A stretch of DNA of 37,316 nucleotides from Candidatus Methylomirabilis tolerans (GTDB lineage Bacteria; Methylomirabilota; Methylomirabilia; Methylomirabilales; Methylomirabilaceae). The translations under genes were made by a program, and so were the position numbers. The notes under the pieces are model-generated. The model did not search any database, was not told the DNA's origin, and saw only the letters and a program-made list of their open reading frames with translations. The DNA is taken from contig JAIOIU010000042.1 in the NCBI GenBank assembly GCA_019912425.1, forward strand, positions 1 through 37,316. Reading direction: 5' to 3'. Shown piece after piece: positions 1 through 22,008 of this stretch. The number at the start of each line of letters is the position of its first letter. Positions within the stretch are counted from its first letter, which is position 1.

Positions 1-954
1 CTTGGCCTCTATCCCTGGACCCGGCCGCTGGCGAAGCGACTGTTCGCGATGGTTCTGGATCCCCTCCGCACCATGGGGACGGCGTTTCTACATACCCTGC
101 CGAACCTGGTCTTCCTCGCCCTCCTGATGATCGTGATCCGCTATGTCCTGAAACTCATCCGGCTGTTCTTTGCGGGTATCGATCAAGCCACGATCACGGT
201 GTCCGGTTTTGACCGTGAGTGGGCCTGGCCGACCTATAAGATCGTCCGTATGCTCGTCGTCGCCTTTGCGATCATAGTGGCCTATCCCTATATCCCCGGT
301 TCCGAGTCCGAGGCGTTCAAAGGGGTCTCCCTCTTCCTCGGCGTAATCTTTTCGCTGGGCTCGTCGTCGTTCATTGCCAATATGATCGCCGGCTATAGCA
401 TGACCTACCGGCGCGCGTACAAGGTCGGCGACCGTATCCAGGTCAACGACATCTTCGGAGATGTGGTCGAGATGCGGCTGATGGTGACGCACCTGCGCAC
501 GGTGAAGAATGAGGAGATCGTCGTGCCGAATTCGCTGATCTTGAACAGCCATGTCATCAACTACAGTACGCTCGCCCAGTCCCGCGGACTGATTCTCCAT
601 ACCACCGTCGGCATCGGCTACGAGACATCCTGGCGGCAGGTTGACGCGATGCTGCGGCTGGCCGCCGAACGTACGCCAGGACTGCTTACGGAGCCGCCGC
701 CCTTTGTGCTGCAGAAGTCCCTGGGCGACTTCGCCGTGACCTACGAGCTCAACGTCTACTGCAACAACCCGCAAGGCATGGCGCAGTTCTACACGGCGCT
801 GCACCAGAACATCCTCGATGCGTTCAACGAGTACGGTGTGCAGATCATGACGCCGGCCTACGAGGGCGACCCGGACGCGCCCAAGGTGGTGCCACGGGAG
901 CAGTGGTTCACAGCACCGGCAGCAGATTCTCCACCCCTGAGCGATAAGAGATGA
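1..954 (+). CDS. MscS-family mechanosensitive ion channel, 5'-truncated by window edge
   Basis: Small-conductance mechanosensitive channel of the inner membrane; the family opens under membrane tension to release solutes during hypo-osmotic shock. The reading frame is open from base 1 (an internal ATG lies at 49), so the true start is probably outside the window. Three hydrophobic segments are visible (about codons 25-48, 85-100 and 110-135). The last matches the pore helix TM3 with GSSSFIANMIAG, followed by the beta domain with YKVGDRIQV and IVVPNSLILNSHVINYS, which are MscS hallmarks. The C-terminal alpha/beta domain is present and ends in an acidic/proline-rich tail. No coupled neighbour follows. 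The family call is sure; the full length is unknown. Confidence 0.9.
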   Translation, partial: LGLYPWTRPLAKRLFAMVLDPLRTMGTAFLHTLPNLVFLALLMIVIRYVLKLIRLFFAGIDQATITVSGFDREWAWPTYKIVRMLVVAFAIIVAYPYIPGSESEAFKGVSLFLGVIFSLGSSSFIANMIAGYSMTYRRAYKVGDRIQVNDIFGDVVEMRLMVTHLRTVKNEEIVVPNSLILNSHVINYSTLAQSRGLILHTTVGIGYETSWRQVDAMLRLAAERTPGLLTEPPPFVLQKSLGDFAVTYELNVYCNNPQGMAQFYTALHQNILDAFNEYGVQIMTPAYEGDPDAPKVVPREQWFTAPAADSPPLSDKR

Positions 955-1115: not shown

Positions 1116-1361
1116 ATGCCGGTCACTCTTTCTATCAAGGATGTGCCTGATCAGATCGCGGATCAGCTTCGTGCGCGTGCGGCACGTCATCACCGTTCGC
1201 TGCAAGGGGAACTTATGGTTATCCTGGAACACAGTCTCGGACAACCGCCACAACTAACCCCCGCCGAATTGCTTGCTCGTGTGCGGGCATCCGGGTTGCG
1301 GACACCTGCCGAATCATCAAAGGTGATACGGCGGGATAGAGATGAACGTTCGCGTCGTTGA
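1116..1361 (+). CDS. FitA/VapB-type ribbon-helix-helix antitoxin
   Basis: 81-residue antitoxin. The N-terminus VTLSIKDVPDQIADQLRARA followed by HHRSLQGEL is the classic FitA-like Arc/MetJ ribbon-helix-helix signature: a beta strand, then two helices rich in Arg/Ala with an RSLQGE turn. The C-terminal 35 residues are basic and probably disordered, the part that wraps and inhibits the toxin in this family. The start ATG has a strong Shine-Dalgarno sequence (GGAAGGGAGG) at 1099-1108. It overlaps the downstream PIN toxin by 20 bases, implying translational coupling. Expected role: neutralise the toxin and repress the operon through the palindrome over the -10 box. Confidence 0.85.
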   Translation: MPVTLSIKDVPDQIADQLRARAARHHRSLQGELMVILEHSLGQPPQLTPAELLARVRASGLRTPAESSKVIRRDRDERSRR

Positions 1362-1740
1362 TGCCTCGGCATTGGGGGCCCTGGTCTTTGGAGAGCCTGA
1401 GGCAACAAAGATCGCCGCTCAGCTCTCGGATGGGCTGCTGACTGCTCCCGCGCTGCTGCCTTTCGAGTTGGCAAGCATATGCCTGAAGAAAATCAGGGCC
1501 CATCCAACGCAGGGGACCTTGATTCAGGAGGCCTTTGAGTTGGCGGGGCAGATGGCCATTAAGACCGTCGAAGTAGATCATTCGCGCGTTGTCGCATTGG
1601 CGAACGACTACGATCTTACCACGTACGATGCAAGTTACCTCTGGTTGGCTCGGGAGTTGCGCGCCGAGTTGGTCAGTTTGGACACTAGACTGCTCAAGGC
1701 GATGAAGAGGGGCGTGTGGCGGAAGACGAGGGGCAAGTAG
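1342..1740 (+). CDS. PIN-domain ribonuclease toxin (VapC/FitB-like)
   Basis: 132-residue PIN-domain toxin, an Mg-dependent endoribonuclease that in this family cuts tRNA or rRNA when the antitoxin is lost. The four acidic active-site residues are all present: D7 in VVDASAL, E42 in PFELAS, D96 in TTYDASYLWLA and D114 in VSLDTRL. Length and spacing are normal, so it looks functional. It starts inside the antitoxin gene and ends in a basic tail. The exact subfamily (VapC versus FitB) cannot be decided by eye; the FitA-like partner favours FitB-like. Confidence 0.9.
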   Translation: MNVRVVDASALGALVFGEPEATKIAAQLSDGLLTAPALLPFELASICLKKIRAHPTQGTLIQEAFELAGQMAIKTVEVDHSRVVALANDYDLTTYDASYLWLARELRAELVSLDTRLLKAMKRGVWRKTRGK

Positions 1741-2121: not shown

Positions 2122-2325
2122 GCACGACATATATATGGAAATCTCGGTACATCCAACAGCATATTCAAGGAGTGCGCGTATGGGGAGTATTCGCTTGAGA
2201 GGCGTACCGAGTCGGAGTAGGCTTCGATATGCCGGCACTGATTCGTAGCGGAGTTCTCCACCCCGACGTAGCGCGCTGACAGACGTGAATAACGATAGCT
2301 TGCAGGCAACGACAGGAGGATCGTG

Positions 2326-4737
2326 ATGAAACACATTGCGCGATATGCAGCAATTGTTGGGCTGGCGGTCGGCGCCGTATTCGTCGGAACCGCCTGGGCG
2401 CAAATCACTCTTCCGCCTCCGGAGCCTCCGTTCAAGGGGAAGATCGGGCGTACGTACAAGGAATCGCAGCCCGATAAGATTCTGATCACCAAGTCGCCCG
2501 ACGGGGCTCCCAACATCCTGGTCGTGCTCATTGATGATGCCGGCTTCGGTTCGTGGAGCACCTTCGGCGGCCAGATTCCCACACCCAACCTGGACCGCCT
2601 GGCACAAGGGGGGCTGAGTTATACGCGCTTCCACACGACGGCTCTTTGCTCGCCTACTCGCGCGGCGTTGCTGACCGGACGCAACCATCACTCGGTCGGC
2701 ACCGGCGTGATCACGGAGATGGGGACAGCCTATCCGGGCTATAGCGGCCTCACCCCAAAGAGCGCGGCGATGGTCTCGGAAATCCTGCGCCAGAACGGCT
2801 ACAGCACCGCGTTCATCGGCAAGAACCACAACGTACCCGACTGGGAAACGAGCGTATCGGGACCATTCGACCGCTGGCCTGGGCTGCAAGGGTTCGATCA
2901 TTTCTACGGCTTCATCGGCGGGGAAGCGAACCAGTGGGCGCCGGGCGTTTATCGCGACCACCAGCGGGTGGAGATGGAAATCCCGAAAGGACGGGAAGGG
3001 CGTTACACGCTCAACGATTCACTAGCGGACGAGACCATCAACTACATCTACCAGCAGAAGTCGGTTACTCCGGACCGGCCGTTCTTCGTCTATTACGCGC
3101 CCGGCGCCACGCATGCCCCGCATCATGTGCCCAAAGAGTGGCTGAGCAAGTTCAAAGGGCAATTCGACCAGGGCTGGGACCAATACCGGGAGGAGACCTG
3201 GCAGCGACAGCTCAAGCTGGGCGTCATCCCGTCCGACACGAAGCTAACGCCGCGGCCCAAGGAGATCCCGGCCTACGATTCGCTGACGCCCGACCAAAAG
3301 CGGGTCGCCGCGCGGCTGATGGAGGCGTTCGCGGCGTACACCGCGCAGACCGATTACGAGGTGGGCCGCGTCTTCGAAGCCATCGAGCAGATCGGCCAAA
3401 TGAACAACACGCTCATCTTCTGGATCATTGGCGACAACGGTGCGTCCATGGAAGGCACGCCCTTCGGCGCGTTCAACGAGCTGGCGGCCTTGGGCGGCAT
3501 CCCTGAGGATCCGGCTTACGTGCTGCAGCACCTGGACGAGATCGGCGGGCCGAAGGCTTATAACCACTTCCCTGTGGGCTGGGCCTGGGCCATGAATACA
3601 CCCTTCCAGTGGGGCAAGCAGGTCGCCTCGCATTTCGGCGGCACGCGCAATCCGATGGTGATCGCCTGGCCCGATCGCATCAAGCAGCGCGGCATCCGTA
3701 CCCAGTTCCATCATGTGATCGACATCGTGCCCACCATCCTCGAGGCGGCGAAGATTCCGGCACCAACCGAAGTCGGCGGCGTGAAGCAGAAGCCTATCGA
3801 GGGCGTGAGCATGATGTATAGTTTCGACCAGGCGAACGCCGAAGGCACGCGTACGGTGCAGTACTTCGAGTTGCTCGGTAACCGCGGAATCTATAAGGGC
3901 GGCTGGTTCGCCGCCGTGCGGCATGGCCGCCTTCCCTGGGTCACCGGGATCGGCTCCTCCGTGAGCTTCGATCAGGACAAGTGGGAGCTTTACGACCTCA
4001 CGCGCGACTTCAGCCAATCCGACGACCTGGCCGCGAAGCATCCGAGAAAACTCGAGGAGCTTCAGCAGGCGTTCTGGGTCGAGGCGGAGAAATACCAGGT
4101 GCTTCCCTTGGACGATCGGTTGGCTGAACGCTTCAATCCTGTGCTGCGCCCCAGCGTGATCGAGGGCCGAACCGTCTTCACCTACTATTCCGGCGCGCGC
4201 ATCGCGGACAGTTCCGCCGCGCCGACCCAGAACCGGTCGCACACTATCACCGCCTACTTGAACATTCCCAAGGGCGGGGCGGACGGCGTGCTGGTGGCCG
4301 CCGGGGGAGTCGTGGGCGGCTTTTCTATTTATGTCAAGGACGGACGCCCCATCTACGAATACCGGATGACGCCGGTTCCCACGAAGGTGACCAGCGCCGA
4401 GCCGCTGGCGCCGGGGCCGAATGTGGTGCGCATGGAATTCCGCTATGACGGAGGCGGTCTGGGCAAGGGCGGCACGGTGTCGCTGTTCGTCAACGACAGG
4501 AAGGTTGCCGCCGGACGCCTCGACGCGACCATCTGGGTGGGGAAGTACTCGGCGGACGAGACCTTCGATATCGGCGAAGACTCAGGCTCGCCCGTCAGCG
4601 GCGACTACGCGTCGCCCAACCGCTTCACCGGCACGATCAAGAAAGTGGTGATTGACTCCGCGCCGGCCACACTCACTGCTACTGACCGGCAAAATATCCA
4701 AGACATGCAGCGGGCCGCCAATCTCGCGAGGGAGTAG
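2326..4737 (+). CDS. Secreted arylsulfatase (formylglycine-dependent sulfatase)
   Basis: 803-residue sulfatase, hydrolysing sulfate esters outside the cytoplasm. A signal peptide is clear (KHIARYAAIVGLAVGAV, cut near AWAQ). The alkaline-phosphatase-fold domain starts with NILVVLIDDAGFG (metal-binding Asp pair). The catalytic cysteine is C108 in LCSPTRAALLTGR, the CxPxR motif that FGE converts to formylglycine. IIGDNGASMEG supplies further metal ligands. The last ~200 residues form a beta-rich tail common in the long (about 780-800 aa) arylsulfatases. ATG at 2326 is preferred to GTG at 2323 because AGGAGG (2314-2319) is then 6 bases away. No formylglycine-generating enzyme is in the window. 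Flanking DNA on both sides is decayed, which may mean the gene arrived by transfer or survived in an eroding region. Confidence 0.93.
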   Translation: MKHIARYAAIVGLAVGAVFVGTAWAQITLPPPEPPFKGKIGRTYKESQPDKILITKSPDGAPNILVVLIDDAGFGSWSTFGGQIPTPNLDRLAQGGLSYTRFHTTALCSPTRAALLTGRNHHSVGTGVITEMGTAYPGYSGLTPKSAAMVSEILRQNGYSTAFIGKNHNVPDWETSVSGPFDRWPGLQGFDHFYGFIGGEANQWAPGVYRDHQRVEMEIPKGREGRYTLNDSLADETINYIYQQKSVTPDRPFFVYYAPGATHAPHHVPKEWLSKFKGQFDQGWDQYREETWQRQLKLGVIPSDTKLTPRPKEIPAYDSLTPDQKRVAARLMEAFAAYTAQTDYEVGRVFEAIEQIGQMNNTLIFWIIGDNGASMEGTPFGAFNELAALGGIPEDPAYVLQHLDEIGGPKAYNHFPVGWAWAMNTPFQWGKQVASHFGGTRNPMVIAWPDRIKQRGIRTQFHHVIDIVPTILEAAKIPAPTEVGGVKQKPIEGVSMMYSFDQANAEGTRTVQYFELLGNRGIYKGGWFAAVRHGRLPWVTGIGSSVSFDQDKWELYDLTRDFSQSDDLAAKHPRKLEELQQAFWVEAEKYQVLPLDDRLAERFNPVLRPSVIEGRTVFTYYSGARIADSSAAPTQNRSHTITAYLNIPKGGADGVLVAAGGVVGGFSIYVKDGRPIYEYRMTPVPTKVTSAEPLAPGPNVVRMEFRYDGGGLGKGGTVSLFVNDRKVAAGRLDATIWVGKYSADETFDIGEDSGSPVSGDYASPNRFTGTIKKVVIDSAPATLTATDRQNIQDMQRAANLARE

Positions 4738-4738
4738 G

Positions 4739-4885
4739 ATGAAACTACTTCAAAGGAGGAGCAAGGTCATAAAACCACAAACGGCGAGACTCTATCGCGG
4801 TGGCGCCTGCCACGGACTCCGATCCGGGGTCCGCCGGTATGACGAACTCGCGGCAAGCCGCGGGATTCAACCCGTTCGAGATTGA
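4739..4885 (+). CDS. Small ORF coupled to arylsulfatase, unrecognised
   Basis: 48-codon frame whose ATG lies one base after the sulfatase stop, with GAGGGAG just upstream as a ribosome-binding site. The protein is short, basic and unrecognised, and the sequence after about codon 18 does not look protein-like. It could be the start of a former downstream gene that has been destroyed, in line with the remnants that follow. Confidence 0.2.
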   Translation: MKLLQRRSKVIKPQTARLYRGGACHGLRSGVRRYDELAASRGIQPVRD

Positions 4886-4959
4886 AGAACAGTACTGTCT
4901 GTCGTATCATGGGCCTCATCGTTCTGCGTGTTCAGAGAGGCCCTCTTTAATGTGATACG

Positions 4960-5190
4960 ATGGGCGCTGGAATGGTGCGAGCAGCTTGCACAATTGGCGG
5001 GTTGGTTACCGTCCTTCTGACGATCACGAATGTTGCCACGTACACGGAGCAGCCCCGGCGCGTGCTCATCCTGCACTCATTTGGCCGCGACTTTGTGCCG
5101 TTCATTATCGTGGCATCCGCCTTCAAAACGGAACTGGCCGTGCAGTCGCAAGACTATACGGCTGCCTTCAAGGTCGTCCGCAAGGCGCCC
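4960..5190 (+). pseudogene. Remnant of sensor histidine kinase, N-terminal periplasmic segment
   Basis: The frame begins with a hydrophobic leader (GGLVTVLLTITNVAT) followed by PRRVLILHSFGRDFVPF and ASAFKTELA. This string is characteristic of the start of large hybrid sensor kinases with an ABC-substrate-binding-like periplasmic sensor (usual form RVLLLHSFGR-F-PF---ASAFRTEL). After about 70 codons similarity ends and the DNA continues as the 3' end of a vapC remnant on the other strand. No kinase domain follows, so the gene is truncated. Family assignment is from recognition of the motif only. Confidence 0.6.
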
Positions 5191-5198
5191 TGCATCGA

Positions 5199-5542
5199 TC
5201 ATGCAAATGGGTTGCGAACGGTGAGGGAGGGGAACGGCGTGAAATCGCGGTCACCGCTGATGAGTTCGCTGGTTCCGTGCTCCAGGCAGAGCGCGGCGAT
5301 ATGGGCATCGTGAATAAGGTTGCCAGAGACGCCGGATTCTTCCAGTACCCGCATCATCACGTCGGGATGATTGGTGGTCTCGGAAAGCAGAACCAGCGTG
5401 GGCGACTCCAGAATATGGTGTAAATCATTGAGCGCAGAAGAGCACCTTCCACAAGCTCTCTTAAGAGCTTGTGGGCCTTTTCATGCCATGGGCCGGAACG
5501 GATTTCCGCGTAGATGAGGACGTTCGTGTCGATCGCCCGCAC
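5199..5542 (-). pseudogene. Decayed VapC PIN-domain toxin
   Basis: From a GTG at 5542 the minus strand reads RAIDTNVLIYAEIRSGPWH, the start of a PIN toxin with its first catalytic Asp. The frame then changes near 5430. The second half, in another frame, reads SPTLVLLSE and then NLIHDAHIAALCLEHG, ISGDRDFTPFP, VRNPFA and a stop at 5199-5201. These are the classic VapC C-terminal motifs with the later active-site Asp residues. Total length is about 114 codons against about 140 normally, so there is an internal deletion plus a frameshift. It lies directly after a vapB remnant in the usual antitoxin-toxin order. Confidence 0.8.
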
Positions 5543-5545
5543 TGT

Positions 5546-5805
5546 TCATCGGCCATTCATGAGGTCGAACAGCTTGTCGCGATCCGGGAGGTCAACGCCG
5601 GGTTGGAGTCGAGCATCCCAATCCTCCAGCTTCAATGTGTACCCACGACGCCGAGCCCTGGTCGTCAGCGCCTGCCGAAGCACCTCGTTCACGAGTCCGG
5701 CAAGAGTCTTCCCCTGTCGGGCAGCGCTGCCTTTGAGCGTCTTCAGGAGATCCGTCGAGTGCGAGGGTCGTTCTTTTTATGCATAAACGTGTAATCTATT
5801 CGCAT
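5546..5805 (-). pseudogene. Decayed VapB-type antitoxin
   Basis: Read on the minus strand, RTTLALD occurs in one frame. It continues after a shift as DLLKTLKGSAARQGKTLAGL, then NEVLRQAL, then LKLEDWDARLQPGVDLPDRD and KLFDLMNGR with a stop at 5546-5548. This is the standard ribbon-helix-helix VapB layout ending in LPDRDKLFDLM-GR. The likely start (ATG at 5784 or 5805) lies in a third frame, so at least two frameshifts separate the start from the body. It lies just upstream of the vapC remnant (toxin start 3 bases after the stop), as in an intact operon. Confidence 0.75.
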
Positions 5806-5826
5806 CAAGATGTCAAGAGCAAGCGC

Positions 5827-6057
5827 AATCCCGCGATGAAGTTGTCGGGTATCGGGCTCGGGGGTGCGGCGATGGATGCGGAGGTGGTGGATTCAGCCTC
5901 GGGGGAACGGCTTGCAGCGGTGGTGGACTCGCAATCGGGCGGGCGACTCGGGATCGTCGCCGGTCTGCAAACCTACGGTCATGCCAGGCAGGTCATGGAC
6001 GGATGGGCCGAGCGATTCGTGAAGCGCCTGGATACCATCCACGGCTCTGCGAAGTGA
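5827..6057 (+). pseudogene. C-terminal remnant of a DUF3313 lipoprotein
   Basis: The frame reads MKLSGIGLGGAAMDAEVVDS followed by ASGERLAAVVDSQSGGRLGI and a closing YGHARQVMDGWAERFVKRLD. This matches the C-terminal half of DUF3313 outer-membrane lipoproteins (small-molecule-like repeat DSASGE-LAA-VD followed by a W-hydrophobic helix). The N-terminal lipobox and first half are absent; upstream is the vapB remnant. Therefore a fragment, not a working gene. The family is recognised by eye, and its biochemical role is unknown. Confidence 0.55.
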
Positions 6058-6101
6058 GATCATATCGCGTGTCGGTCCGGCGATATTGCCTGATCCCTGT
6101 T

Positions 6102-6224
6102 ATGACTCCGTATCACTGGGGGACTATCCCCGATGCGAAGGTTGCGCGCTACATCCAGGTCGAGAACAGGATTCGCGCCCTGGTCCGGTTCGAGCTTGCC
6201 GACAAGATTCCCATGGCGAAGTGA
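6102..6224 (+). pseudogene. Short unrecognised ORF, probable fragment
   Basis: 40-codon frame starting at an ATG with no Shine-Dalgarno sequence. It contains a plausible amphipathic helix (AKVARYIQVENRIRALVRFE) and ends in KIPMAK. The composition is protein-like, but no family is recognised. It lies between two clear gene fragments, so it is probably also a leftover. Confidence 0.25.
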
Positions 6225-6281
6225 TCACAGGCTATTTTTCGCCTCGGCTGCCGTATCATTGTGGGCCTTGGAGCTTCCCGT

Positions 6282-6440
6282 GTGCGGTCCGAGGCTGTGG
6301 TGTTCTTCGGCGCGACAGGCGACCTCGTCCTCGAAAAGATCCTTTCGGCCGTGCGATCGCCAATCTATCGTGGGAGGCTGTTGCAAAATGACATCACAAT
6401 AACTCGAACTGGCTGGAGGCGACCTCTGTCCGCGGGATGA
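6282..6440 (+). pseudogene. N-terminal remnant of glucose-6-phosphate dehydrogenase
   Basis: A 52-codon frame beginning RSEAVVFFGATGDLVLEKIL and continuing to TRTGW. It carries the G6PDH nucleotide-binding signature FFGATGDL near the N-terminus, the place where zwf products have it, and a GW at the expected distance. A stop follows 7 codons after the GW, and none of the ~480-residue body is present. Truncated leftover of zwf, the first enzyme of the oxidative pentose phosphate pathway. Confidence 0.65.
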
Positions 6441-6494
6441 TCTCGATGCCGGCAGCCGGCACCATTCGCGCTACTGCCGCTAAGGAGGATTTCT

Positions 6495-7037
6495 ATGCGA
6501 ACTCTTACCAAAGCTCTCGTACTCGGTTTGATAGTTTTCGCGACGGGCTGCGCTCCGTCCGTTACGGTGAAACTTGATTACGACAAAGAAGCCGACTTCG
6601 CGGCGCTGAAGACCTTTTCCTGGTTGCCAATGCCGGTCAATCCGGCGGCCAGCGTCAAAGAGGCCTTGGAGCGCAACAGTCTGATGGACAAACGCATTCG
6701 GCGTGCGGTGGAGGCACAGTTGACCGCCAAGGGCTATCAAGTGAACGTCACCCATTCGGACTTTATGGTTACCTATCACATCGGCGTAGAGGATAAAATC
6801 GCCGTAACCGATTGGGGCTATGGCTATGGCTGGAGAGGGCCCTCAAGGGTTGACGTGTATCAATACCAGCAGGGTACGTTGATCCTGGACGTTATTGACT
6901 CGAAAAGCAAGCAGCTCATCTGGCGCAGTGTCGCGCAAGGCGTTATCGATCCCTCCGCCCCCATCGAGAAGCGCGAACAACGGCTTAACGACGTCGTAAC
7001 AAAAATGTTGGCGGATTTTCCCCTTGCGGGAAAATGA
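6495..7037 (+). CDS. DUF4136 lipoprotein
   Basis: 180-residue predicted lipoprotein with a signal peptide ending in a lipobox (VFATGC, Cys19), so it is anchored in the periplasm or outer membrane. The body matches DUF4136: DYDKEADFAALKTFSWLP near the N-terminus, a middle segment with SDFMVTYHIGVEDK, a Gly/Tyr-rich stretch (WGYGYGWRGP) and a C-terminal strand GTLILDVIDSKSKQLIWRSV. AAGGAGGA sits 5 bases before the ATG. The function of the family is unknown. It is the first intact gene after the remnant zone and lies about 100 bases upstream of the octaheme cytochrome. Confidence 0.85.
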   Translation: MRTLTKALVLGLIVFATGCAPSVTVKLDYDKEADFAALKTFSWLPMPVNPAASVKEALERNSLMDKRIRRAVEAQLTAKGYQVNVTHSDFMVTYHIGVEDKIAVTDWGYGYGWRGPSRVDVYQYQQGTLILDVIDSKSKQLIWRSVAQGVIDPSAPIEKREQRLNDVVTKMLADFPLAGK

Positions 7038-7135
7038 CGATCGGGGCGAATCGTGTCAGTGGCTGCCAAGGCAGAAGAAAAAGGGCCAAAGGGATGTTTT
7101 GGCCGAGATAGAGAGGGGGATTGAGGGGAACGCAT

Positions 7136-9496
7136 GTGGGCAACTTCCAAGGTGTGAATCGGAGGTGGATCCGAATAACGCTCGGAGGGGCGGTATGCCC
7201 TGTGCTGGCAGTCCTCGCTACGGTAGTCGGCTACCAGCGGGGTGAGGCGCTCCCGCCGAGCGGGGCGCCGACATTCGTTGGTCTCGCAAAGTGCGCAGGT
7301 TGCCACCAGAAGGAGGCGAATGCCTACCGAGGGTCGGACCATGCTCGGGCCATGCAGCCTGCGAACGAACAGACGGTGCTCGGCGACTTCGCCAACGCGC
7401 GATTCACGCATCGCGGGGTGACGTCTACCTTCTTCCGCCGGGACGGCAAGTTCTTCGTCCATACGGATGGCCCCAAAGGAAAGTTGCGCGACTTCGAGGT
7501 CACCCATACCTTTGGAATAACGCCGCTCCAGCAGTACCTCGTGCCGTTCCCGGACGGGCGGCTTCAGGCGCTCGGCATGGCCTGGGACACACGGCCGAAG
7601 GCCCAGGGCGGCCAGCGCTGGTTCCACCTCTATCCCAAAGAGACGCTCAGGCCATCGGACCCGCTGCACTGGACGGGGCGGGAGCAGACCTGGAACTACC
7701 AGTGCGCGGAGTGTCACTCGACCGACCTGCGGAAGAACTTCGATGCGGCGCAGAATCGGTATGCCACAACCTGGGCCGAGCTGACCGTGTCGTGCGAGGC
7801 CTGCCACGGGCCGGGCTCGGCGCACGTGGCGTGGGCCGAGAAGCGCCCGTCAGGCGCGCCCAAGGCCCCGTCCGGCACTACAGGCTTTGTGGTGCGGCTT
7901 GGCCGCGACGAGGGAAGTTGGGTGATGAAGGATAGGCAGCACGGTATCGCAGAATGGAGTGGGGCGCCACGCTCGACGGCCGAGGTAGATGCATGCGCCC
8001 GGTGCCACGCTCGACGCCGTCCCATCACGGACCCGTATCCGTATGGCCGCCCTTTCCTTGATACCCACGTACCGGCGCTCCTCGATACTGTGCTCTATCA
8101 CGCTGATGGCCAGATTCTGGAAGAGGTCTTTGAGTACGGATCGTTCGTTCAGAGCCGAATGTTCCGGCGCGGCGTGACCTGTTCGGACTGTCATGAGCCG
8201 CATGGCCTCGGTCTCCGCGCGGCAGGTAACGGCGTGTGCGCGCAGTGCCACCTGACCGCCAAGTTCGACACCCCGGACCACCACCGCCACAAGCCGGGTT
8301 CGGACGCCGCCCGCTGCGTGACATGCCACATGCCGGAGCGTACGTACATGGTGGTGGACCCGCGCCGGGACCATAGCTTTCAAGTCCCGCGGCCGGACCT
8401 CTCGGCTGCGGTCGGCACGCCCAATGTGTGCTCGAGGTGCCACCGGGACCGGCCCCCCAAATGGGCAGCGAAGCAGATTGTGAGATGGTACGGCCCGGCG
8501 AGCCATGCACGGCGGCCGCACTTCGCGCCTGCGCTCGACGCCGGACGCCGCGGCCTCGTGACCGCCGGGAAGGCGCTTGCCGTGGTCGCCACCGACCAGG
8601 ACCAGCCCGGCATCGCGCGCGCGACGGCGCTCGCGCTGCTCCCTGAGTACCGGAGCCCAGCATCGCTCCCCGCGGTCGAGACGGCGATAAATGATGTTGA
8701 TCCTCTGGTGCGATCCACGGCGCTGGCTGCGATCGAGACGCTCCCGCCGACGGAGCAAGTGCGGCTTGCCGCCCCAGGGCTCCGTGATCCCGTACGAGCG
8801 GTGCGCCTGGCGGCGGCCCATGCGCTGGCCGGAGTCCCGCGGCAGACGCTCTCTGCCGAGCAGCAGGCCAACTTCGATTCGACCCTCGCAGAGCTCATCG
8901 CCTCGGAGACGGTCAACGCCGACCGTCCGGAGGCGCACCTGAATCTGGCCAATCTCTATATGCGACTCGGCCGGGCGGCCGATGCCGAGGCCGAACTCCG
9001 CACCGCGCTCGCGCTCGACCCACGCTTTGTCCCGGCCCTCGTCAACCTGGCTGATCTCCTCCGGGCACTGGGGCGCGATGCCGACGGCGAGCGCGCCCTG
9101 GAACGAGCGCTCCGGGTCGCCCCCGACAGCGCCGAAACGCTCCATGCGCTTGGTCTGCTTCGGGTGCGACAAGGCCGCCGCGCGGAGGCGGTGGCTCTCC
9201 TGCGCCGGGCGGCACAGCGTCAGCCGGACTCCACGCGGTTCGCGTACGTCTATGCGGTTGCCCTCTATGGGACGGGTGATCCCGCCGGGGCTATTGCGGT
9301 ACTTGAGGAGACTCATAAGCGGCGACCGGCCGACCGGGACGTCCTGACCGCGCTGGTGAGCTACCTCCGGGAACGCGGGGATAGCAGAGGCGCACTTCGC
9401 TACGCCGAACGGCTCGCCACATTGACGCCCGGTGACCGCGAGGTACGGAGTCTGGTAGAGTCGCTACGTCGCCAAGCCGGCGGCACTTCCCCTTGA
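7136..9496 (+). CDS. Octaheme c-type cytochrome with C-terminal HEAT/TPR domain
   Basis: 786-residue multihaem cytochrome. An N-terminal signal/anchor (RRWIRITLGGAVCPVLAVLA) sends it to the periplasm. Eight CxxCH haem sites occur in order: CAGCH (C53), CAECH, CEACH, CARCH, CSDCH, CAQCH, CVTCH and CSRCH (C432). The haem part resembles cytochrome c554/DmsE-like multihaem proteins. Residues ~455-570 are Ala/Leu-rich HEAT-like repeats, and ~600-780 hold TPR units (PEAHLNLANLYMRLGRAADA and two to three more). The start is uncertain: GTG 7136 has GAGGGGAA six bases upstream; TTG 7121 is the alternative. Haem maturation genes are not in the window. Likely an electron carrier or reductase docked to partners by the TPR tail; no substrate can be inferred. 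Confidence 0.88.
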   Translation: MGNFQGVNRRWIRITLGGAVCPVLAVLATVVGYQRGEALPPSGAPTFVGLAKCAGCHQKEANAYRGSDHARAMQPANEQTVLGDFANARFTHRGVTSTFFRRDGKFFVHTDGPKGKLRDFEVTHTFGITPLQQYLVPFPDGRLQALGMAWDTRPKAQGGQRWFHLYPKETLRPSDPLHWTGREQTWNYQCAECHSTDLRKNFDAAQNRYATTWAELTVSCEACHGPGSAHVAWAEKRPSGAPKAPSGTTGFVVRLGRDEGSWVMKDRQHGIAEWSGAPRSTAEVDACARCHARRRPITDPYPYGRPFLDTHVPALLDTVLYHADGQILEEVFEYGSFVQSRMFRRGVTCSDCHEPHGLGLRAAGNGVCAQCHLTAKFDTPDHHRHKPGSDAARCVTCHMPERTYMVVDPRRDHSFQVPRPDLSAAVGTPNVCSRCHRDRPPKWAAKQIVRWYGPASHARRPHFAPALDAGRRGLVTAGKALAVVATDQDQPGIARATALALLPEYRSPASLPAVETAINDVDPLVRSTALAAIETLPPTEQVRLAAPGLRDPVRAVRLAAAHALAGVPRQTLSAEQQANFDSTLAELIASETVNADRPEAHLNLANLYMRLGRAADAEAELRTALALDPRFVPALVNLADLLRALGRDADGERALERALRVAPDSAETLHALGLLRVRQGRRAEAVALLRRAAQRQPDSTRFAYVYAVALYGTGDPAGAIAVLEETHKRRPADRDVLTALVSYLRERGDSRGALRYAERLATLTPGDREVRSLVESLRRQAGGTSP

Positions 9497-21155: not shown

Positions 21156-21251
21156 AATGCTCAGCCTCCAGATCTTGGCATCAGAGTACTCCAAGACGCT
21201 AGACCTTCTCCCCTTCACCTCACCCTTTCAGCGTATCTTATTGTTATCTTA

Positions 21252-21280
21252 ACGATAGTATCGCTTTACCCCTAAGTCAA
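21252..21280 (-). promoter_or_regulatory. Promoter of the CBS-korAB operon
   Basis: On the minus strand TTGACT (21275-21280) is followed after 17 bases by TATCGT (21252-21257), 5/6 and 4/6 to consensus. It lies about 100 bases upstream of the CBS start codon. Confidence 0.5.
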
Positions 21281-22008
21281 GCAAAAGCCGGGGATGGGTA
21301 AGGAGGCTAACTCCCAACCTCGCACCGTGTAACTCTTACGAGTTGCTGCTTCGATCTTGCGTGCATATCCGTGAAGAGTAGATCGAGTTGTCGTAAAACG
21401 CGCTCCAGAATATTACTACAACAGGTTCTTAAGAATCAGTAAGTTGATCACGATGAACGGTGAGCCTCCCAGGTTTGGTATGGTGTTTGCGGATTGATTA
21501 GTTTTGACGAGGAATTTGATGAAAAATGGTATTGACTCCTGGGGATGGTGGCATATGTCTAAATATATGAATAGTTACTACCGTCCCAACGTTGTTGAAA
21601 ACGCCTAATTCGCGATCGTCGATAGTTGATCCTTTTAGGTACCGATTCGTGCATGTGTTTGAAATCGGTAACACCTTGACGTGGCCTCAATGCCGCGCCA
21701 AACAAGAGTTAGTACTCAGAGCATAAAATAGCTTGCCTCCCCCTTTAGCGAAGGGAGAAGTTGCTGGAGATGTTGTGCAAGAGTGCAATCTAGTTAATGC
21801 TCCCCGTAATATGGACGATTTATGTATAACAACGTTGGGATACTGCTGACAAAAAGTATGTAATTCATGCCGACTGTCGTGTCGGCAGACGCAGGGTAAG
21901 AGCTGAACAATCGAGAGTTCGGTGACGAGGGCGGTGTGTTCGGGCTTGGCATGGGTGTTGCTCTAGTATTTTCCGAAACTACAAGTTGGGCGACGAGGAG
22001 GGAATGAG
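21281..22008. other. AT-richer intergenic region without recognisable gene
   Basis: No plausible coding frame or known RNA was found. It is visibly poorer in GC than its surroundings. It contains a widely spaced 13-bp inverted repeat (listed separately) and an imperfect hairpin near 21737-21757 (CTCCCCCTTT / GAAGGGAG). A strong ribosome-binding site (GAGGAGGG) closes the region before the gene at 22009. Confidence 0.5.
21584..21840. repeat. 13-bp inverted repeat bounding a 257-bp segment
   Basis: TCCCAACGTTGTT (21584-21596) and its exact reverse complement AACAACGTTGGGA (21828-21840) bound a non-coding stretch. They could be ends of a small non-autonomous element, but no flanking target duplication is visible. 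Confidence 0.4.

What the first reader, a model, noticed from the sequence alone, without database searches (positions are those of the whole stretch)
4738..6480. Gene graveyard: at least five broken genes in 1.7 kb
In order there are the N-terminus of a sensor histidine kinase, frameshifted vapC and vapB (-), the C-terminus of a DUF3313 protein, an unknown fragment and the N-terminus of G6PDH. None is intact, while genes on both sides are. The abrupt joins, such as kinase to vapC 3' end near 5190, suggest repeated insertion and deletion at one spot, possibly a former integration hotspot.
Basis: partly seen in the sequence, partly recalled or inferred. Interest (0 to 1): 0.5.

Follow-up and report, generated by a model that had tools for sequence, protein, structure and literature searches.

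The report
Remnants of several decayed genes
Between two working genes of a Methylomirabilis-like bacterium lie leftover pieces of about five old genes; comparison with a sister species shows ordinary gene decay by deletion plus one likely insertion, and one of the reported pieces (a sugar-metabolism enzyme) is probably not there.

Summary
Confirmed: a kinase-like N-terminus (weak evidence), a broken vapB/vapC pair on the minus strand (vapC lost about 88 nt inside; vapB is frameshifted near its start), and the C-terminus of a DUF3313 gene. The 'unknown fragment' is the last ~30 codons of a 157-residue exported protein, intact at the same place in a sister species (G013) and as a paralogue elsewhere in the same genome. 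Not supported: the G6PDH N-terminus (E=0.026; most of its DNA aligns with the non-coding trailer behind the intact paralogue). Missed: a truncated, genus-wide palindromic repeat (REP-like) at 4802-4886. The sister species carries the same interval without kinase or vapBC, with an intact 157-residue gene and a DUF3313 remnant cut differently. So DUF3313 and the 157-residue gene are old residents, DUF3313 decaying separately in two lineages; only kinase/vapBC look like arrivals. No tRNA, no phage or plasmid DNA match, and no integrase-type family among the window proteins scanned: 'integration hotspot' is not supported. Ordinary bacterial gene decay; low interest.

The parts
2323..4737 (+). intact sulfatase (left flank)
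   Evidence: PF00884 E=4.2e-64; 85% identical protein in G013 at the same place
4802..4886 (+). truncated copy of a genus-wide palindromic (REP-like) dispersed repeat
   Evidence: matches many places in own and related genomes; core found 9 times in own genome, 0 for the reversed control; far arm of the long stem missing
4960..5172 (+). N-terminus resembling that of sensor histidine kinases; rest of gene absent
   Evidence: tblastn to Bradyrhizobium and Microvirga; Microvirga gene has HATPase_c, HisKA, ABC_sub_bind; no Pfam match itself
5199..5423 (-). vapC C-terminal part (residues 70-142 of 144) with stop codon
   Evidence: TIGR00028 E=8.8e-11; 62% identity to the VapC on L164
5441..5545 (-). 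vapC N-terminal part (residues 2-34 of 144), other frame; about 88 nt lost between the two parts
   Evidence: TIGR00028 E=2.4e-5; 58% identity
5448..5475 (.). 12-pair inverted repeat with 4-base loop, beside the vapC deletion point
5546..5795 (-). vapB, frameshifted near its N-terminus
   Evidence: 56% identity over residues 11-77 of a 77-aa VapB; start-like residues lie in another frame, 5721-5795
5823..6057 (+). C-terminal part of a DUF3313 gene; N-terminus missing
   Evidence: PF11769 E=7.5e-11, positions 132-187 of 187; 82% DNA identity to intact DUF3313 gene in G013
6058..6128 (+). downstream flank of the DUF3313 gene, collinear with G013, ending at a deletion join
   Evidence: window 5976-6129 = L137 6509-6661
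6129..6224 (+). last ~30 codons of a 157-aa exported protein gene
   Evidence: intact in G013 L137:6705-7178 and as paralogue C103:922-1395
6225..6357 (+). decayed 3' trailer with former hairpin, not a G6PDH start
   Evidence: 74% DNA match to the C103 paralogue running past the stop codon; fold; PF00479 E=0.026 only
6495..7037 (+). intact DUF4136 gene (right flank)
   Evidence: PF13590 E=4.6e-40; 78% in G013, 99% in G060

Best explanation
The interval is an intergenic zone of pseudogene remnants. An old pair of genes, DUF3313 and a 157-residue exported protein, stood between the sulfatase and DUF4136 genes before the two sister species split (shown by synteny). A kinase fragment and a vapBC pair lie there in this lineage only; they were most likely gained by horizontal transfer (inferred). 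All these genes then lost function and are being removed by unselected small and mid-sized deletions (joins seen in the sequence; mechanism inferred). A genus-wide palindromic repeat also landed beside the sulfatase and is itself truncated. The zone has no function as a unit.
For: Same interval in G013: DUF3313 remnant, intact 157-aa gene, no kinase or vapBC, flanked by the same sulfatase, DUF4136 and cytochrome genes. The G013 DUF3313 remnant keeps a part the window lost and lost a middle part the window kept, so the two decayed at least partly separately. Sequence breaks: vapC deletion and frame change, vapB frameshift, DUF3313 without N-terminus, 157-aa gene without its first ~3/4. Dicodon scores of three pieces are still coding-like (kinase frame 24.9, vapB piece 16.1, DUF3313 34.5), fitting decayed genes rather than random DNA. 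G060 confirms the right part.
Against: The left part (4738-6184) exists in one assembly only: G060 has no match to query positions 156-1391 of the interval and its contigs end at window ~2946 and 6185. The kinase fragment has no relative among the class genomes searched (1 of 95, the own one) and no Pfam match, so its ancestry is weak. The gain of vapBC was not seen directly; loss in G013 fits as well.
Confidence: 0.87

Rival explanations
1. Former integration hotspot: one attachment site received several elements in turn, and each decayed.
For: The kinase/vapBC block is absent from G013's interval; a second, intact toxin-antitoxin pair (FitA-like RHH + PIN) lies nearby at 1116-1740.
Against: Two of the broken genes are shared residents with G013; no tRNA, no phage or plasmid DNA match, no integrase-type family among the window proteins scanned.
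Confidence: 0.07
2. Assembly or binning error: unrelated short pieces wrongly joined, or false frameshifts.
For: The same-species assembly G060 breaks on both sides of this interval, as happens at strain-variable or hard-to-assemble places; no reads were available.
Against: 6185-6500 is identical in 315 of 316 bases in G060; the DUF3313 tail, its flank and the 157-aa tail are in the same order as in G013; vapB and vapC are in their normal order and strand.
Confidence: 0.05
3. Some of the short frames are live genes, for example a short VapB without its toxin.
For: Some pieces still score as coding; vapB keeps residues 11-77.
Against: vapB's beginning is out of frame, vapC lacks about 35 residues, and G013 has neither in this interval.
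Confidence: 0.02

Closest known systems
Bacterial pseudogenes / failed horizontal transfers (Liu et al. 2004, PMC522871; abstract and section list seen)
   Same: truncated and frameshifted remnants between intact genes; part of them probably from transferred genes
   Different: nothing in kind; several remnants lie close together
Type II toxin-antitoxin system VapBC (TIGR00028-type VapC)
   Same: antitoxin before toxin, same strand, adjacent; both VapC parts match the family
   Different: both genes are broken; not a working system
CGTC-tagged REP repeats (PMC3733652; passages seen)
   Same: full copies such as the one on L013 read CGTC, an 8-bp stem beginning AT, a 4-base loop and a CCA tail; dispersed, up to tens of copies
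   Different: the copy in the window lacks the far arm; the passages seen name five phyla with CGTC repeats, this one not among them

Membership tests
Pseudogene remnant | homology to a longer intact gene, with truncation, frameshift or stop | tested here: met
   met for vapC, vapB, DUF3313 and the 157-aa gene; weak for the kinase
Pseudogene remnant | intact relative at the orthologous place | tested here: met
   met for the 157-aa gene only; DUF3313 is broken there in both species, intact at another place in G013
VapBC | complete PIN domain in VapC | tested here: not met
   residues ~35-69 of 144 deleted with change of frame
VapBC | intact antitoxin frame before the toxin | tested here: not met
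   N-terminus of vapB in another frame
G6PDH (Zwf) | significant match to the NAD-binding domain | tested here: not met
   PF00479 15.6 bits against cut-off 22.1, E=0.026; TIGR00871 E=0.077; no PDB G6PDH at E<=10
Sensor histidine kinase | HisKA/HATPase_c domains | tested here: not met
   only ~70 residues of the N-terminus remain; no Pfam match
Integration hotspot | tRNA or other attachment site, integrase, different inserts in relatives | tested here: not met
   no tRNA, no integrase-type family in the proteins scanned; only one comparable relative (G013) for inserts
CGTC REP repeat | CGTC tag, 8-9 bp stem starting AT, 4-5 base loop, CCA tail | tested here: inconclusive
   seen by eye in full copies (L013) against features in PMC3733652; window copy lacks the far arm
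CGTC REP repeat | dispersed in many copies | tested here: met
   10 of 15 genus genomes, 1 to 63 copies, reversed control 0 in all

The most novel reading that the evidence does not exclude
The spot between the sulfatase and DUF4136 genes is unusually prone to rearrangement: two sister species separately carved different deletions out of the same DUF3313 gene while one also took up a kinase/vapBC piece, possibly helped by palindromic sequence (the REP-like repeat and the 12-pair inverted repeat beside the vapC deletion).
Probability: 0.08. Interest if true: 0.3.

Novelty: new member of a known kind. Interest (0 to 1): 0.13.

Why it matters
It corrects an annotation (no G6PDH start; the 'unknown' piece belongs to a gene that is still intact in this genus) and gives a small example of gene decay compared between two sister species. 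It does not change any view of how such genomes work.

Tried and rejected
G6PDH remnant: rejected. The reading of 6225-6357 as a trailer rests on a 74% DNA match that runs past the stop codon of the C103 paralogue; the C103 trailer folds into a strong hairpin (-41.3 kcal/mol, z -4.41, 0 of 200 shuffles as good), the window's copy only weakly (z -1.25, 21 of 200), and the 82 nt behind the gene in G013 not at all (z 0.86, 166 of 200). An old zwf remnant in both paralogous loci is not strictly excluded.

Length of the gene-poor stretch as a sign of something special: with a simple dicodon gene finder, 364 gaps in 400 kb sampled from the single-contig genome G006 had a maximum of 1272 bp and a median of 58. 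The 1757 bp without an intact gene here is longer, but by the same mechanical rule this interval is not one gap, since its pieces (4960-5313, 5546-5692, 5779-6057) are called as coding; the largest gap then left in it is 437 bp. The two numbers are not comparable and I draw no significance from them.

Kinase ancestor in relatives: 1 of 95 class genomes, the own one. Plasmid tblastn gave only weak matches, 6 records, best E=1e-3. Phage and plasmid DNA: no match. Rfam: no match in the window. Literature: of 6 papers that hold both 'Methylomirabilis' and 'pseudogene' (listing only) none by its title concerns this; the REP search (listing only) listed 12 of 191 papers, none of the 12 holding 'Methylomirabilis'. 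(listing only) was a general search on pseudogenes.

Full report
Setting. The window is contig C42 of a 2.65 Mb genome in 167 contigs, 99.96% complete. A genus member, G006, is one contig of 2,752,854 bases; from recall this is the length of the 'Candidatus Methylomirabilis oxyfera' chromosome, so the genus is probably Methylomirabilis (recalled, no call confirms it). The finding lies between an intact sulfatase (2323-4737) and an intact DUF4136 gene (6495-7037), followed by a cytochrome/TPR gene (7121-9496).

What is in the interval. Left to right: a truncated dispersed repeat at 4802-4886; a frame from 4960 whose residues ~14-71 resemble the N-terminus of histidine kinases; vapC and vapB on the minus strand, 5199-5795; the C-terminus of a DUF3313 gene, 5823-6057; its downstream flank to about 6128; the last ~30 codons of a 157-residue exported protein to 6224; a decayed trailer to about 6357; and unmatched DNA to the DUF4136 leader at about 6483.

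vapBC. Against the nearest relative found (G090, L164), VapC residues 2-34 lie at 5441-5545 and residues 70-142 at 5202-5423; 17 nt lie between them where 105 are expected, so about 88 nt are gone and the frame changes. VapB residues 11-77 are in frame and the first ones are in another frame. This kind of vapC is common in the class: the C-terminal piece matched 27 of 95 genomes. A 12-pair inverted repeat with a 4-base loop (5448-5475) sits beside the deletion point; such repeats are a known aid to deletion (recalled), but one case proves nothing.

The unknown fragment. Window 6127-6222 matches G013 C15:39080-39175 at 80%, the end of an intact 157-codon gene with a signal-peptide-like start (L137:6705-7178); 6129-6357 matches C103 of the own genome at 74%, in the end of and behind an intact paralogue of the same length (C103:922-1395). 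Relative to G013 about 420 bp are missing between the DUF3313 flank and this tail.

The G6PDH claim. The frame at 6228-6431 gives PF00479 at E=0.026 and TIGR00871 at E=0.077, both under cut-off, and no G6PDH in the PDB search. Most of this DNA (to 6357) aligns with the trailer of the C103 paralogue, where the frame is closed by stops. The C103 trailer has a strong hairpin. I read it as a former terminator region.

The sister species. In G013 the same flanking genes enclose about 38300-39350 of contig C15. DNA comparison shows no kinase or vapBC there. The DUF3313 remnant of G013 keeps a stretch that the window lost, plus the very end, and lost the ~180 bp in between, which the window kept. The two remnants were therefore cut at least partly separately, although a first damage in the common ancestor is possible. 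An intact DUF3313 gene stands at another place in G013, next to a mechanosensitive channel gene; a relative of that channel gene is at 49-951 of the window, so part of the neighbourhood has been rearranged.

The same-species genome G060. It matches 6185-6500 in 315 of 316 bases and then its contig ends; its sulfatase contig ends after residue 208. Of the interval only its right end, the C103-like paralogue and repeat copies were found in it. This neither supports nor refutes the left part.

The repeat. The core occurs, with up to 3 mismatches, 9 times in the own genome, 14 in G060, 8 in G013, 63 in G009, 20 in G006, 11 in G005, 4 in G010, 3 in G004, 1 each in G012 and G001, and in none of the other 5 of 15; the reversed control gave 0 throughout. 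Y1-type transposases (PF01797) were found in 10 of 15 genomes: in 9 of the 10 with the repeat (not G001) and in 1 of the 5 without it (G003). Relatedness of the genomes was not corrected for. Of 6 transposase loci scanned, one (L184, G060) had a copy of the repeat about 1 kb from the transposase. Full copies fit the CGTC class of REP repeats.

Verdict. A real but ordinary remnant zone; several deletions shown, one insertion likely, no hotspot shown, one item struck.

Noticed in passing
window 4802-4886; L003-L016, L144-L161: Genus-wide palindromic dispersed repeat, 1-63 core copies in 10 of 15 genomes, of the CGTC REP type by eye; presence goes along with Y1 transposases (9 of 10 against 1 of 5 genomes), not corrected for relatedness.
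   Followed up: partly
window 1116-1740: An intact toxin-antitoxin pair: FitA-like RHH antitoxin and PIN-domain protein, 3.5 kb from the broken vapBC.
   Followed up: partly
window 5448-5475: 12-pair inverted repeat with a 4-base loop inside the broken vapC, next to its deletion point.
   Followed up: no
L140 1396-1480 (G000 C103): Strong hairpin just behind the 157-aa paralogue, no shuffle of 200 as stable: a likely terminator.
   Followed up: partly
window 49-951 and L136: The mechanosensitive channel gene lies 1.4 kb before the sulfatase here but its relative about 16 kb before it in G013: a rearrangement or large indel between the species.
   Followed up: no
window 21219-22008: 790 bp without a coding-like frame, the largest gap of the window by the simple gene finder.
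   Followed up: no
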